Assembly: GCF_001590835.1 (NCBI RefSeq) | Contig: NZ_LTAQ01000001.1 | Location: 357,970 to 421,969 of the forward strand | DNA length: 64,000 bases | Reading direction: 5' to 3' | DNA from: Bacillus gaemokensis | GTDB lineage: Bacteria; Bacillota; Bacilli; Bacillales; Bacillaceae_G | In this document: piece by piece, positions 2,216-64,000 of the stretch | Numbering within the stretch: position 1 is the first letter of the stretch | How the letters are laid out: every line of letters begins with the position of its first letter | Program-made: the position numbers and the translations under genes | The notes under the pieces: generated by a model | Told to the model about the DNA's origin: nothing | Databases searched by the model: none | Seen by the model: only the letters and a program-made list of their open reading frames with translations

Positions 2216-3118
2216 TTACTTTAACAGTGGGTATGGCGAATTAGGCAACATTGCAATATGCTCACCATCCGTCTCAATCTCTATCGTTTGTTTATCTGTT
2301 GCATATATCATTACACCATATCGCTTTAATCTTTTTACTACACTTTGGTGTGGATGCCCATATGGGTTTTTATTCCCATAAGAAAGAATAGCAAATTGAG
2401 GTCCTACCTTTGTCAAAAAGGTTTCACTAGTTGAGGTGTAGGAACCATGATGCCCAACTTTTAATACATCTGCATGTACATCATAATCGTTTATTATTTT
2501 TTTCTCCGTTTGTACGTCAGCATCTCCCATTAACAAAAAATCAGCCTTACCATATCGCACCTTTAAAACAATGGAGGACTCATTATTTTCATCTTTTGAT
2601 TTCCCATTATTCAACACTTGAATTGAAACATGCGGATCCAATGGGATATGTTGACCTTGTTTAACACGAATAAACGGAATCCCCCTCTTTTTAATATTTC
2701 TTCTATACGTATGATACGTAAAAGAGCTATATGTTTTCCCACTATCTAATACGAGTGATACTGGCATTTGTTCTATAATTGGAATAAGACCACCTATATG
2801 ATCCATATCAGGATGAGTTCCTACTACAACATCTAAATGGTTAATTCCCTTTTGAATTAATTTTTGAATAATTACTTCACCCGCTTCATAAGGCCCTCCA
2901 TCAATCAACATTGTTTTGCCATTTGGGAAAATAATAAGCGAAGCATCCCCTTGTCCTACTTTCAAAAAGCTAACTTTCATTTTCCCAAGATGTGGACGTT
3001 GCATATATAAAGAAGACGCAGTATGAATAGACGTCATATATCTTTTGACAGATGTGCTGTTTAATGAACAACATAATAAAACAGAAACTAACAACAGAAT
3101 AATCCGTACCCTCTTCAT
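2216..3118 (-). CDS. secreted metallo-beta-lactamase-fold (ComEC C-terminal-like) hydrolase
   Basis: A 300-residue protein with an N-terminal hydrophobic export or anchor segment (VRIILLLVSVLLCC) followed by a metallo-beta-lactamase domain. The zinc motif HPDMDH sits near residues 102-107, then MGDAD and VGHHGS, the order seen in the ComEC/Rec2 C-terminal domain family. Without the ComEC competence channel it is a stand-alone extracellular hydrolase; such proteins are suspected nucleases or phosphodiesterases, but substrate cannot be told from sequence. The second ATG (3118) is chosen because AAAAAGGAG precedes it at the right spacing. It lies downstream of scpB, separated by a terminator. 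Confidence 0.8.
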   Translation of the reverse strand: MKRVRIILLLVSVLLCCSLNSTSVKRYMTSIHTASSLYMQRPHLGKMKVSFLKVGQGDASLIIFPNGKTMLIDGGPYEAGEVIIQKLIQKGINHLDVVVGTHPDMDHIGGLIPIIEQMPVSLVLDSGKTYSSFTYHTYRRNIKKRGIPFIRVKQGQHIPLDPHVSIQVLNNGKSKDENNESSIVLKVRYGKADFLLMGDADVQTEKKIINDYDVHADVLKVGHHGSYTSTSETFLTKVGPQFAILSYGNKNPYGHPHQSVVKRLKRYGVMIYATDKQTIEIETDGEHIAMLPNSPYPLLK

Positions 3119-3171
3119 AACCCGTCTCCTTTTTTTCATTTAGTATGACTCGCTATGTATTTCATATACAA

Positions 3172-3199
3172 AAAAAGCTTAGCAAAATGCTAAGCTTTT
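3172..3199 (-). terminator. terminator after scpB
   Basis: AAAAGCTTAGC-aaaat-GCTAAGCTTTT stem followed, on the minus strand, by TTTTTTTGT. The hairpin begins in the scpB stop codon region. Confidence 0.85.
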
Positions 3200-3770
3200 A
3201 TTTAGATAATTCCTGCAATGAGCCAAAGAATAGATCTGCCTCATTCATTTCTTCATTTTCTTCAGAAAGAGCTGGTAGATCATCTAATGTCTGTAATCCA
3301 AACGTATCTAAAAACTCTTTTGTTGTGCCGTACAAAATGGGACGTCCCGGGCCTTCTGCTCTACCAGTTTCTTTGATAAGCAAATGTGATACCAGTGTTT
3401 GCAATGCCCTGTCCGTTTTCACACCACGAATCTCTTCCATTTCACTTCTTGTAATTGGTTGACGATATGCAACAATCGCTAATGTTTCAAGAGCTGCCTG
3501 AGAGAGAGAAGCGGCTGTTGGTGTATCCATTAACTTTTGATAATATAGCGCGTGTTCCTTCTTTGTAGCAAGGCGATACACTTTTGCAAATTGTACAATT
3601 TGCAATCCTCGCTGCAGCCCTTCCCATTCTTTTTGCATTTCTTCAATCATTTTAATTACATCTTTCACTTCAACTTCAAGTACTTTTGCAATTTGTTCTG
3701 GATAAATCCCTTCATCTCCCGCAACAAATAAAAGCCCTTCAATAATCGCCATCTGTTCTTTTCTATTCAA
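3198..3770 (-). CDS. scpB: segregation and condensation protein B
   Basis: Kleisin-interacting winged-helix subunit of the SMC-ScpAB condensin, needed for chromosome organisation and segregation. The 190-residue protein has the typical [15 protein letters not shown] start, the second winged helix with [26 protein letters not shown], and the GRPILYGTT segment. Translation starts at TTG (3770), eight bases after GAAAGGAG. Its partner scpA is upstream but separated by about 260 bases holding repeat DNA, unlike the tight scpA-scpB arrangement usual in Bacillus. Confidence 0.96.
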
Positions 3771-50242: not shown

Positions 50243-50503
50243 ATTTCCACCTCATTTACATATATACCGAAATCTTTCCCGTACTAGTATAACAAAATTT
50301 ATCCTCTTATTTACGAGCGGTACTACCACATCTCAACATACAGAACAAGAAAAGAAGCTAAACGAGAAAAATGAATTGATGAAAACTTACCATCAGCAGA
50401 TGAAGTTTCACTTTATTCATCTTTCATTTTCACACAATTCTTCACATTCGAATATTTTTTACTATCCTTTTTTCTTTTTTGTGCTATAATGTGAGCAAAC
50501 AGC

Positions 50504-50642
50504 ATCCTTCGGGGTCGGGTGAAATTCCCAACCGGCGGTGATGAAGTGCACACTTCTAAGTCCGTGACCCGTTTTCAAGCTTGAAAACGGTGGATCTAGT
50601 GAAACTCTAGGGCCGACAGTATAGTCTGGATGGGAGAAGGAT
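50504..50642 (+). ncRNA. FMN riboswitch (RFN element)
   Basis: The conserved RFN landmarks appear in order: ATCCTTCGGGGTCGGGTG, AATTCCCAACCGGCGGTGAT, AGTCCGTGACCC, GGTGGATC..GGGCCGACAGT and TGGGAGAAGGAT. P1 is formed by ATCCTTC and GAAGGAT. A TATAAT (50485-50490) lies just upstream as the -10. It controls ribD-ribE-ribBA-ribH. The gap 50243-50503 before it holds only a TTTCACTTT repeat remnant (50406-50414). Confidence 0.97.
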
Positions 50643-50893
50643 ATGTTTTCTAGTGCTTATATAGCGAATACACTTTTATTTTGGCATACACATTTTTAGA
50701 GATTTGATGTAAATCACTGTATATGTTTTATTTCATATACCTATGTTTCTATGCTGAAATAAAAAGATACGACTAGCGTATGAAAAAATTGATAGTTTGC
50801 TAGGCTTCTTTCTAATGCAAAAATATCAATCATCGTTAGGTTTCTTTCCTATACTTTCGTATTCAAGCTATATTTCTAGAAATCACGTCTCCC
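50643..50893 (+). other. long linker between FMN aptamer and its terminator
   Basis: About 250 AT-rich bases without a gene. A hairpin GTATATG-ttttattt-CATATAC lies near 50723, and short repeats such as GCTAGGCTTCTTTCTAATG / GTTAGGTTTCTTTCCTATA occur around 50801 and 50836. No second aptamer is seen. Confidence 0.5.
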
Positions 50894-61580: not shown

Positions 61581-61730
61581 TTCCTCCCTCCTTTCTTTTT
61601 TCATTATAACGCACAAACTAAGAATATAAAAAACATCCTCCCATTATTTACTTTTTGAAAAATAATATATATATGTATTGACATACTAGATAAATTTATG
61701 ATAAAAATTTAACTAACATCATATGAATCG

Positions 61731-61966
61731 GCAATGATAGGATCTAGTAGTATTTCGTTTTTTGATTTCAGAGAGCTGGTGGTCGGTGCGAACCAGTACA
61801 GAGCGAATTATGAATTACCCCCTGGAGCTTCTTTTACGAAACATTCGGAGTAGTAAAAGACGGTTATGGACCGTTATTCCTATAGAGTGGTGAAATGAAG
61901 CTATTTCACAATTTAGGGTGGTACCGCGATTTTTTCGTCCCTGCATTACATGCAGGGGCGTTTTTT
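61731..61966 (+). ncRNA. T-box leader, probable tyrosine type
   Basis: A full T-box riboswitch: stem I with the AG-bulge region (TTCAGAGAGCTGGTGG..GTGCGAACCAG), a specifier strand GAATTATGAATTACCCC in which both TAT and TAC can be read as tyrosine codons, then the T-box AGGGTGGTACCGCG (61915-61928) and the terminator CGTCCCTGCA..TGCAGGGGCG with T-run (61936-61966). The gene controlled is the NhaC-family transporter at 62200. The tyrosine call is from the specifier position and from remembered T-box-regulated NhaC-type tyrosine transporters. Confidence 0.9.
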
Positions 61967-62015
61967 ATTTTTTGTGGTGCGTAGTTTACTTCCCTTTATT
62001 TTGTATTACCTTCAC

Positions 62016-62080
62016 TTCACAAGCTAGGGTGGTACCGCGATCTTTTTCGTCCCTGCATATATATGCAGGGACATTTTTTT
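62016..62080 (+). ncRNA. second T-box antiterminator/terminator without stem I
   Basis: TTCACAAGCTAGGGTGGTACC.. repeats the expression platform of the upstream leader: T-box AGGGTGGTACCGCG (62026-62039) and terminator GTCCCTGCATAT/ATATGCAGGGAC with T-run (62049-62080). About 40 bases are nearly identical to the first copy. Only about 50 bases separate it from the first terminator, too few for a stem I. Confidence 0.88.
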
Positions 62081-62199
62081 ATGATGTTACACAATCACCG
62101 GTGATTTGTCGTAAAATTCAAAATTTTAGAAGGAAATATATAATATTGGCGAAATTTATATAAAAAAGAACTATTTTATATTATTAGGAGGGGCAAACA

Positions 62200-63573
62200 A
62201 TGGTTTCAAAATTCGAATCTATTCTTTTAACAATTTTAATCTTTTTTTGTATTGGCTTTAGCGTTATTAAATTAGAAACATCACCACATATCCCAATTCT
62301 ATTCGGCATTATTGTATTGTTAGCTTTTGGCTTTATTAAAAAAATCTCTTGGTCTGATATGGAAAAAGGTATGATAAGTAGTATTTCAGCTGGTATTCCA
62401 TCCATTTTTATTTTCTTACTTGTCGGTGTATTAATTAGTGTTTGGATTGCCGCTGGGACAATTCCAACATTAATGGTATACGGCTTCCAACTTGTATCAC
62501 CTAAAATTTTCATTCCGACAGTATTTGTTGTTTGTGCGATTGTTGGAACGAGTATCGGTAGTGCCTTTACAACAGCAGCAACAGTAGGACTTGCCTTTAT
62601 GGGAATGGGCACTGCTCTCGGATACGATCCAGCGCTTATTGCTGGAGCAATTATTTCTGGGGCTTTCTTTGGGGATAAAATGTCTCCTTTATCTGATACA
62701 ACAAACTTAGCTCCTGCTGTAACAGGTGTAGACCTTTTTGAACACATTCGTAACATGCTTTGGACGACAATTCCTGCTTTCCTTATCGCCTTTATTGCTT
62801 TCTTCATTTTAGGGAGCGGGTCTTCAGGAGATGTTGATTTCTCTACTTTTACAAATACATTAGAGAAGAATACAATCATTTCAATTGTTACGCTTATTCC
62901 GATTCTATTACTATTCTTATTCGCATTTAAAAAGGTACCAGCTGTTCCAACTTTACTTGCTGGAATTGTTGCTGGAATTATTATCCTCTTTATTTTCAAG
63001 CCAGGTACATCACTTGCGGATTTAATGAAAATTATGCAAGATGGCTATGTATCCAAGACAGGTATAAAAGATATTGATAGCTTATTATCACGCGGTGGAT
63101 TACAAAGTATGATGATGTCAATCGCACTTATTTTCCTTGCTCTTTGTATGGGTGGTCTGCTACAAGGAATGGGCATTATTACACAACTTATGAACATGCT
63201 TTCTAATTTTGTTAAGACAAGTACACGTTTAATTGTTTCTACTGCATCGACAGCAATCGGCGTTAACTTCTTACTTGGTGAACAATACTTATCTATCGTT
63301 TTAACAGGACAAGCATTTGCTAATAAATACGATGAAGTTGGTTTAAAGCGTCGTAATTTATCCCGAGTACTAGAAGATGCTGGTACAGTTATTAACCCAC
63401 TTGTACCATGGGGTGTAAGTGGAGTCTTCTTAGCAAACGTACTAAGCGTTCCAACTGTTGATTATGTTCCATACGCAATCTTCTGCTTAGCTTGTCCACT
63501 CGTTACAATTATCGTTGGATTTACAGGGTTTGGACTTTCATGGAAGAAAGAAAAAGCTGTTACTGTTTCTTAA
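62200..63573 (+). CDS. NhaC-family transporter, probable tyrosine permease
   Basis: A 457-residue membrane protein with 11-12 helices, of the NhaC ion transporter group: GTSIGSAFTTAATVGLAFMGMG, ISGAFFGDKMSPLSDTTNLAPA, NFLLGEQYLSIVLTGQAFANKY and EDAGTVINPLVPWGVSGVFLANVL. Annotated members are called Na+/H+ or malate-lactate antiporters; the T-box leader argues for an amino acid, most likely tyrosine. TAGGAGGGGC precedes the ATG. Confidence 0.85.
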   Translation: MVSKFESILLTILIFFCIGFSVIKLETSPHIPILFGIIVLLAFGFIKKISWSDMEKGMISSISAGIPSIFIFLLVGVLISVWIAAGTIPTLMVYGFQLVSPKIFIPTVFVVCAIVGTSIGSAFTTAATVGLAFMGMGTALGYDPALIAGAIISGAFFGDKMSPLSDTTNLAPAVTGVDLFEHIRNMLWTTIPAFLIAFIAFFILGSGSSGDVDFSTFTNTLEKNTIISIVTLIPILLLFLFAFKKVPAVPTLLAGIVAGIIILFIFKPGTSLADLMKIMQDGYVSKTGIKDIDSLLSRGGLQSMMMSIALIFLALCMGGLLQGMGIITQLMNMLSNFVKTSTRLIVSTASTAIGVNFLLGEQYLSIVLTGQAFANKYDEVGLKRRNLSRVLEDAGTVINPLVPWGVSGVFLANVLSVPTVDYVPYAIFCLACPLVTIIVGFTGFGLSWKKEKAVTVS

Positions 63574-63622: not shown

Positions 63623-64000
63623 TTATCTATTTGCTTTTTTTCGTCTAAATAGCATGAACACACCTGCTCCAACAAATGCAAGTCCTGCCCCAATTGTAGA
63701 AAAGACAGTAGTTCCCGTTTTTGGCAAGTCACGATCTACCTTACTTGTTTCTTTCTCTTGACTTACGTTTGTATCTTTAGTTCCATCAGTAGAAGTTGTT
63801 GGGTTACCCCCATTGTTATCTCCACCTGTCGTTGGTGGCGTTGTTGGATTATCCCCGTTGTTGTCCCCACCTGTCGTTGGTGGCGTTGTTGGATTATCCC
63901 CGTTGTTGTCTCCACCTGTCGTTGGTGGCGTTGTTGGATTATCCCCATTGTTGTCCCCACCTGTCGTTGGTGGCGTTGTTGGATTATCCCCATTGTTGTC
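63623..64000 (-). CDS. LPXTG cell-wall-anchored protein, C-terminal 125 residues
   Basis: The 3' end of a minus-strand gene continuing past the right edge. The C-terminus has the sortase signal LPKTG, a hydrophobic helix (TVFSTIGAGLAFVGAGVFMLF) and the basic tail RRKKANR. Before it is a linker (STDGTKDTNVSQEKETSKVDRD) and tandem 15-residue repeats of DNNGDNPTTPPTTGG. Such Pro/Thr-rich repeats span the cell wall. The function of the missing N-terminal domain cannot be seen; collagen-binding-type adhesins are one option. Confidence 0.9.
   Translation of the reverse strand, partial: DNNGDNPTTPPTTGGDNNGDNPTTPPTTGGDNNGDNPTTPPTTGGDNNGDNPTTPPTTGGDNNGGNPTTSTDGTKDTNVSQEKETSKVDRDLPKTGTTVFSTIGAGLAFVGAGVFMLFRRKKANR
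63821..64000. repeat. 45-bp tandem repeat in the wall protein gene
   Basis: Four complete 45-base units (63821-63865, 63866-63910, 63911-63955, 63956-64000) with a degenerate fifth on the left. Units differ only at a few third positions (for example GGGGAC/GGAGAC and AATGGG/AACGGG), so protein repeats are identical while DNA is slightly varied. The array continues beyond the window. Confidence 0.95.

What the first reader, a model, noticed from the sequence alone, without database searches (positions are those of the whole stretch)
61731..62080. T-box leader with a duplicated, stem-I-less expression platform
After a complete T-box riboswitch, the T-box sequence AGGGTGGTACCGCG and its terminator are repeated about 110 bases downstream without room for a second stem I. 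Transcription must pass two terminators, each with its own antiterminator, while only the first has a codon reader. The second could be a failsafe terminator, a site for a second uncharged tRNA 3' end docked from the first stem I, or a decaying tandem T-box. The near-identity of about 40 bases suggests a recent duplication.
Basis: partly seen in the sequence, partly recalled or inferred. Interest (0 to 1): 0.7.

Follow-up and report, generated by a model that had tools for sequence, protein, structure and literature searches.

The report
Partly duplicated tRNA-sensing gene switch
A tRNA-sensing switch in front of a transporter gene carries an extra copy of its on/off half without the tRNA-reading half; relatives suggest it is what is left of a complete double switch, and other Firmicutes keep a fuller version that may let one tRNA be checked twice.

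Summary
Window 61725-61945 is a complete Tyr (UAC) T-box; a second T-box motif starts 111 nt later with its own antiterminator and terminator and no room for stem I. The gene is nhaC-like. The three closest nhaC relatives found carry two or three full T-boxes, so the window copy is most simply a reduced tandem unit. It lacks the RRRxG-stem III-AA part of the discriminator, so I predict a second terminator in series with little or no tRNA response. A similar reduction occurs before aroA in another family. Following the pattern outward, 29 of 63 genomes of one Firmicutes class carry one-sensor, two-platform T-boxes whose second unit mostly keeps a discriminator (32 of 36 leaders) and repeats only the 3' strand of a linker helix; the single 5' strand covaries with both 3' strands. 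This suggests strand exchange that docks one sensor on two platforms in turn. Partially tandem T-boxes are named in print with unknown mode of action (PMC7583486, passages). The exchange is inferred, untested, and not seen in the window.

The parts
61725..61945 (+). Complete class I T-box leader, first unit (stem I, II, IIA/B, III, antiterminator)
   Evidence: RF00230 150.9 bits, gathering 93
61816..61818 (+). Specifier codon UAC (Tyr)
   Evidence: Read by me from the Rfam alignment; PMC2494555 (passages) assigns Tyr to NhaC T-boxes
61885..61911 (+). First discriminator flank: RRRxG (GAGUG 61885-61889), stem III (61890-61909), AA (61910-61911)
   Evidence: Sequence; element test
61915..61942 (+). 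First T-box motif and antiterminator (AGGG/CCCU, bulge UGGU 61919-61922, GCGA/UCGU)
61936..61972 (+). Terminator 1 (stem 61936-61960) with T-rich tail
61973..62025 (+). Linker between the units: no stem I, II or IIA/B found; no RRRxG-stem III-AA; holds GUAUUACCUU (62003-62012), able to pair with AGGGUGGUAC of the second T-box
   Evidence: a weak long-loop hairpin only; the sequestering pairing is not significant (35 of 200 shuffles)
62026..62054 (+). Second T-box motif and antiterminator; 14-nt motif and antiterminator pairs identical to the first
62049..62081 (+). Terminator 2 (stem 62049-62072, 10 pairs) with T-rich tail
62117..62144 (+). Promoter-like site downstream of terminator 2 (TTCAAA-16-TATAAT); consensus match only
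   Evidence: 9 sites found in the region against a shuffle mean of 3.3, sd 2.2
62200..63573 (+). nhaC-family antiporter gene (tyrosine transport inferred from the specifier)
   Evidence: TIGR00931, 432.7 bits, cut-off 370

Best explanation
The leader of nhaC is a reduced (partially tandem) Tyr T-box array. Unit 1 is a full tRNA-Tyr sensor that gates terminator 1. Unit 2 has lost stem I, II, IIA/B and the stem III purine flank and keeps only the antiterminator/terminator pair. Polymerase that escapes terminator 1 because uncharged tRNA-Tyr is bound then meets terminator 2, where read-through is set mainly by the intrinsic competition of antiterminator 2 and terminator 2, not by tRNA. The second unit thus acts as a fixed-loss or failsafe terminator in series, lowering basal and induced expression. 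Shown: the anatomy of both units, and full tandem arrays before nhaC in three relatives. Inferred: the direction of change (loss from a tandem array), the tRNA-blindness of unit 2, and the effect on expression.
For: Both platforms are complete. The three closest nhaC relatives found (62-67% identity) have two (L001/G001), two (L017) and three (L019) complete T-boxes. Before aroA, G136, G163 and G339 show two T-box motifs 254-275 nt apart and G395/G407 have a second aroA with motifs 282 nt apart (read from sequence, not scanned with Rfam), while L047/L064 and L048/L049 have a full T-box plus a copy without room for a sensor. Unit 2 of the window fails the RRRxG-stem III-AA test that unit 1 passes; [quoted passage not shown] Rfam at E up to 10 lists no T-box match at unit 2, whereas 3 of 6 second units in the genomes gave partial matches of 27-32 bits on model positions 147/159-216 (a different search mode). 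In one-strand folding, antiterminator 1 with terminator 2 (-55.1) is far below antiterminators 1 and 2 together (-40.9 kcal/mol).
Against: If unit 2 were only a terminator its T-box strand should drift, yet its 14-nt motif is identical to the first; but this case and L047, L048 and L049 were picked because the motif is intact, so this is biased. Tandem arrays were seen only in the three closest relatives: L021-L032 (40-42% identity) have one T-box each, L020 (51%) none, and L002-L008 none at the gathering score. The direction of change is inferred; close relatives of the window were not available. One-strand energies do not describe co-transcriptional competition. A consensus promoter lies after terminator 2, so the gene may partly bypass both units.
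Confidence: 0.55

Rival explanations
1. Second checkpoint on the same tRNA: after terminator 1 is passed, the single stem I with its docked tRNA is handed to platform 2 (by strand exchange or by the tRNA 3' end moving to the second UGGU bulge), so read-through at both terminators depends on one uncharged tRNA.
For: UGGU bulge, A1, A2 and the G-U at the A2 base are intact in unit 2. In the class of G422 most second units keep a discriminator and a strand able to re-pair with the sensor side.
Against: In the window unit 2 fails the RRRxG-stem III-AA test, and pairing of the copy-1 region with the linker is no better than shuffles (40 of 200). A swapped antiterminator (T-box 1 with the 3' strand of unit 2) computes at -50.7 against -55.1 kcal/mol for antiterminator 1 plus terminator 2.
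Confidence: 0.17
2. Decaying relic with no selected role: what is left of a second T-box after a deletion, still terminating some transcripts but on its way out.
For: Degenerate linker and lost stem III flank; full arrays in the three closest relatives; such pairs are rare in the order (1 of 397 genomes at 84-114 nt; 2 of 397 at 114-144 nt).
Against: A useless strong terminator before a transporter gene should be costly, and its core is intact. In the parallel aroA case the second platform shows no difference between L063 and L064 while the linker shows several; between L048 and L049 it shows one. These numbers are small.
Confidence: 0.2
3. Fresh slippage duplication of the platform alone, unrelated to any tandem array.
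For: 31-nt block at 90% and 16-nt block at 100% identity.
Against: Full tandem copies within other genomes are about equally alike (82-94%), and tandem arrays stand before the same gene in relatives.
Confidence: 0.06
4. A hidden complete second T-box or an assembly artefact.
For: None found.
Against: No second Rfam match listed at E up to 10, only 53 nt between the units, and a like layout in other genomes.
Confidence: 0.02

Closest known systems
[quoted passage not shown]
   Same: Unit 1 is a full member with UAC specifier; Tyr T-boxes before NhaC genes are described in PMC2494555 (passages)
   Different: A second platform without a sensor follows
Fully tandem T-boxes (PMC12452182 and PMC9413887, passages; and L001, L017, L019 here)
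   Same: Two or more terminators in series before one gene
   Different: Tandem units each have a stem I; here unit 2 has none
'Partially tandem T-boxes' named in PMC7583486 (passages)
   Same: Probably the same kind; [quoted passage not shown]
   Different: The passages seen give no anatomy, origin or mechanism to compare
Co-transcriptional strand exchange in riboswitches (PMC9756952, PMC10907184; search listing with the start of the abstract only)
   Same: Strand exchange during transcription
   Different: I did not read them; the exchange proposed here would re-dock a sensor on a second platform

Membership tests
T-box riboswitch (unit 1) | Full covariance-model match including stem I and T-box | tested here: met
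   150.9 bits over model 1-219
T-box riboswitch (unit 1) | Specifier agrees with the gene | tested here: met
   UAC before an nhaC gene; NhaC assigned to Tyr in PMC2494555 (passages)
T-box riboswitch (unit 2) | Stem I with specifier | tested here: not met
   No match listed at E up to 10; 53 nt of linker
T-box riboswitch (unit 2) | RRRxG-stem III-AA flank of the discriminator | tested here: not met
   unit 1 passes, unit 2 does not
T-box riboswitch (unit 2) | T-box bulge UGGN, helices A1 and A2, competing terminator | tested here: met
T-box riboswitch (unit 2) | Response to uncharged tRNA | not testable with these tools
   Needs transcription assays
Partially tandem T-box (one sensor, two platforms) | Full T-box followed by a platform without room for a sensor | tested here: met
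   the definition is mine, as the passages of PMC7583486 give none
One-sensor/two-discriminator class found here (L091-L126) | Second unit with discriminator, and a single 5' linker strand complementary to both units | tested here: not met
   Window fails both; the class meets the first in 32 of 36
Fully tandem T-box | Two complete sensors | tested here: not met
   contrast L001, L017, L019

The most novel reading that the evidence does not exclude
A class of T-box riboswitches uses one tRNA-reading sensor and two discriminators in series. The sensor side ends in a single strand (consensus GGGGAUAUCGGAU). It first pairs with a strand of unit 1, and after terminator 1 has been passed it re-pairs with the equivalent strand of unit 2, so the same docked tRNA is checked for charging a second time before the gene is transcribed: two-step checking of one ligand by strand exchange. 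The window carries a degenerate Bacillus-type counterpart.
Probability: 0.4. Interest if true: 0.85.

Novelty: new variant of a known kind. Interest (0 to 1): 0.6.

Why it matters
[quoted passage not shown] The comparison here separates two kinds. One is reduced arrays in Bacillales, including the window, whose second platform fails the discriminator test. The other is a recurrent class, often before genes that read as DAHP synthase, in which the second platform mostly keeps a discriminator and can share one sensor strand. If the exchange is real, an RNA tests one bound ligand twice in series, a proofreading-like design that can be tested with paired point changes and in vitro transcription.

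Tried and rejected
Hidden second stem I: no sign of it. Sequestration of the second T-box by its own linker as a general rule: in the window GUAUUACCUU can pair with AGGGUGGUAC (-10.9 kcal/mol, third of 45 motifs), but 35 of 200 shuffles do as well; in L083 and L084 it is rarer (12 and 1 of 200), in L078 and L079 weak (127 and 121 of 200). By whole-linker folding the window gives 238 of 500, L047 0 of 500, L048 22 of 500. Left as a hint. Swapped antiterminator in the window: no energetic advantage. A local helix for the second-unit strand in the class: not supported, mean z -0.25, 1 of 33 at 5 of 100 or fewer, with 3 of 36 dropped for short upstream sequence.

Against my own exchange idea: per-sequence shuffles of the linker give only mean z -1.23, with 1 of 36 at 2 of 200 or fewer; trans pairing beats own pairing in 27 of 36, not all; at positions where the 5' strand departs from its consensus the unit-1 strand pairs in 30 and the unit-2 strand in 33 of 45, and in L094 and L103 the unit-1 strand does better; the number of further pair types does not exceed shuffles (89 of 500 and 69 of 500 as high). 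The 5' strand was placed on the first UAUC after CCGUU, so its invariance at those four letters is by construction, and the 3' strands were taken in their best-pairing register.

The first discriminator test (stem starting exactly after RRRxG) passed 5 first units and 20 second units of 36; I then widened it to stem offsets 5-7 and an end shift, giving 30 and 32 of 36, with 68 of 1800 in shuffled controls. Plasmid and viral collections gave nothing useful. Vitreschak 2008, Gutierrez-Preciado 2009 and Kreuzer and Henkin 2018 are not held (60 and 61 were ids guessed for the first two), so an earlier description there cannot be excluded. A search for six phrases such as 'partial T-box' and 'two antiterminators' found 0 papers.

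Full report
Observation. The window holds a complete T-box at 61725-61945 (RF00230, 150.9 bits) with specifier UAC (61816-61818, my reading), followed 111 nt later by a second T-box motif with its own antiterminator strand and terminator. An Rfam scan at E up to 10 lists no second T-box. The gene behind it, 62200-63573, is an nhaC-family antiporter (TIGR00931); PMC2494555 (passages) places NhaC-family transporters under Tyr T-boxes, including one in the Bacillus cereus group. That the window belongs to that group is my reading, not a tool result. No whole genome of the window is held, and the best nhaC matches in the collections searched were 62-67% identical.

Origin. The three nhaC relatives at 62-67% identity have complete tandem arrays: L001/G001 two, L017/G012 two and L019/G026 three, with UAC as I read the sequences. 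More distant relatives do not: L021-L032 (40-42%) have one T-box each, L020 (51%) none, and L002-L008 (41-56%) none at the gathering score. Over the platform the window copies are 85% identical; tandem copies in the other three genomes are 82-94%, copies of different genomes 77% on average (30 pairs). Near-identity is therefore usual for such arrays and does not date the event. The simplest account is loss of the sensor half of a downstream unit.

Parallel case. A scan for two exact motifs too close for a second sensor found 1 of 397 genomes of the order at 84-114 nt (L047) and 2 of 397 at 114-144 nt (nearly the same sample; L048, L049). All three have a full T-box first and stand before aroA, bifunctional DAHP synthase/chorismate mutase (HMM for L047; the others by reading the ORF start). 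A fourth (L064, same genus as L047) was found by similarity. In the same family (16 genomes held; 5 and 7 of 16 matched at E 1e-20 or better, the rest not looked at) G136, G163 and G339 have two T-box motifs 254-275 nt apart before aroA, and G395/G407 have a second aroA with motifs 282 nt apart (HMM for L065). Between L063 (the L047 place) and L064 the second platform shows no difference, while the linker shows several, including one that turns a G-U into an A-U pair of a stem III in the second unit; between L048 and L049 the second platform shows one difference. Reduction of tandem units has thus probably happened more than once.

Function in the window. By PMC7583486 (passages), the unit that senses charging is the discriminator: stem III flanked by RRRxG and AA, plus the antiterminator; [quoted passage not shown] Unit 1 of the window passes this element test; unit 2 does not, nor do the second units of L047, L064, L048 and L049, although L047 and L064 keep a stem III by eye. 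Unit 2 of the window keeps the UGGU bulge, A1, A2 and terminator. I therefore predict a terminator in series with little or no tRNA response. A promoter-like site after terminator 2 leaves open a bypass.

Wider class. A phylum scan gave 12 of 199 genomes (13 places). In the class of G422 it was 29 of 63 (six of these places were already), and in the class of G493 3 of 4 (the same places as). Together these are 36 leaders, L091-L126. Rfam T-box matches above the cut-off were found in 11 of 13 and 20 of 20 loci scanned; L120, L124 and L126 were not scanned. The two misses, L095 and L103, score 87.1 and 90.0 bits, below the cut-off of 93. In three loci (L091, L107, L115) the single best match is about 370-390 nt long and ends in the second unit, that is, the model joins the sensor of unit 1 to the platform of unit 2. 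Downstream ORFs read by eye in large part as DAHP synthase (HMM for L100), in L091-L093, L095 and L096 as an SSS-type symporter (HMM for L092, below cut-off), and in L094 as a TrpX-like binding protein (HMM, below cut-off). The specifier reads UUC in many; I did not assign all.

The class differs from the window. Its second units pass the RRRxG-stem III-AA test in 32 of 36, first units in 30 of 36, shuffled controls in 68 of 1800 (a stricter first version gave 20 and 5 of 36). Between CCGUU and stem III the first unit holds a 5' strand, consensus GGGGAUAUCGGAU, that the second unit does not repeat; the second unit repeats only a 3' strand (first unit about AACCUGUAUCUUU, second unit about AUCCCGUAUCCUU). 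The 3' strands lie 13-36 and 22-32 nt from their T-boxes.

Evidence for exchange. On 31 distinct rows (of 36 leaders), the pairing of the 5' strand with the unit-2 strand has 84.9% standard cells, 7 of 13 pairs with changes on both sides and 26 such cells (shuffles as high: 0, 15 and 0 of 500); the pairing with the unit-1 strand has 81.1%, 8 of 13 and 20 cells (0, 0 and 0 of 500). Further pair types do not exceed shuffles (89 and 69 of 500). Slid registers give 29-56% paired. The rows were placed on UAUC and in the best-pairing register, which leans towards the structure. In all 36 leaders pairs 3 to 8 with the unit-2 strand are standard, and at pairs 3, 4 and 5 the 5' base changes 4, 2 and 3 times on a tree of the upstream sensor part. 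In L113 and L095 the altered 5' strand is matched better by the unit-2 strand than by the unit-1 strand; in L094 and L103 the reverse; over all altered positions 33 against 30 of 45. Exchanging linkers among genomes gives equal or better pairing in 0 of 20000 permutations, with the caveat of relatedness. In five of these genomes 54 T-box matches were found and 30 loci fetched; 18 leaders could be parsed; none of 15 single ones has the helix motif, while 2 of 3 dual ones match it and the third has the 5' strand. Against: single-sequence shuffles of the linker are weak (mean z -1.23, 1 of 36 at 2 of 200 or fewer), and the two 3' strands are paralogues, so part of the covariation may be shared.

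Model for the class (inferred): uncharged tRNA on stem I stabilises antiterminator 1; polymerase passes terminator 1; the unit-2 strand, in 27 of 36 the better complement by duplex energy, displaces the unit-1 strand; the sensor with its tRNA is now joined to discriminator 2, which tests the 3' end again before terminator 2. The window does not show the strand (40 of 200 shuffles as good), so I do not extend the model to it.

Literature. Passages seen: PMC7583486, PMC7778990, PMC12452182, PMC9481103, PMC9413887, PMC2494555, PMC8632094, PMC3766115. Search listings only: PMC9756952, PMC10907184. None of the passages seen describes the shared strand. Searches. The comparative surveys of Vitreschak 2008 and Gutierrez-Preciado 2009 were not readable, so priority for the partial arrays themselves may lie there.

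Noticed in passing
L143 (minus strand, tRNA 1553-1627) and L154 (tRNA 1656-1731): A complete tRNA-Ala(GGC) gene lies inside stem III of the T-box leader of a leuS-like gene (ORF read by eye) in G507 and G422, 2 of the 5 genomes, between CCGUU and the T-box. A tRNA nested in a T-box that seems to be for another amino acid is unexpected.
   Followed up: partly
L001 about 2895-2966, L017 about 1402-1476, L019 minus strand about 2961-2893: A short ORF with a shared GG[IL][AV]RY motif stands between the tandem T-boxes and nhaC in the three relatives (read by eye); the window has at most a fragment (LAKFI then stop) at 62146-62163.
   Followed up: no
window 62093-62106: Perfect 14-nt palindrome AATCACCGGTGATT between terminator 2 and nhaC, possibly a protein-binding site.
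   Followed up: no
window 62003-62035: The linker can pair with the second T-box over 10 bp (GUAUUACCUU with AGGGUGGUAC), hiding part of the UGGU bulge; not significant alone.
   Followed up: partly
L063 against L064, linker before the second T-box: Several substitutions between the two species in the second-unit linker seem to keep or improve its pairing with stem III and the T-box strand (read by eye; energies).
   Followed up: partly
L091, L107, L115: The Rfam T-box model itself joins the sensor of unit 1 to the platform of unit 2 in its best match, so automatic annotation may hide dual platforms.
   Followed up: no
L035 (minus strand, T-box 2998-3256): A second, more distant NhaC relative (32%) in G026 with its own T-box.
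   Followed up: no
window 63623-64000 (-): Surface-protein-like C-terminus with LPKTG and NPTTPPTTGGDNNGD repeats.
   Followed up: no
window 50501-50645: FMN riboswitch, 115.9 bits.
   Followed up: no
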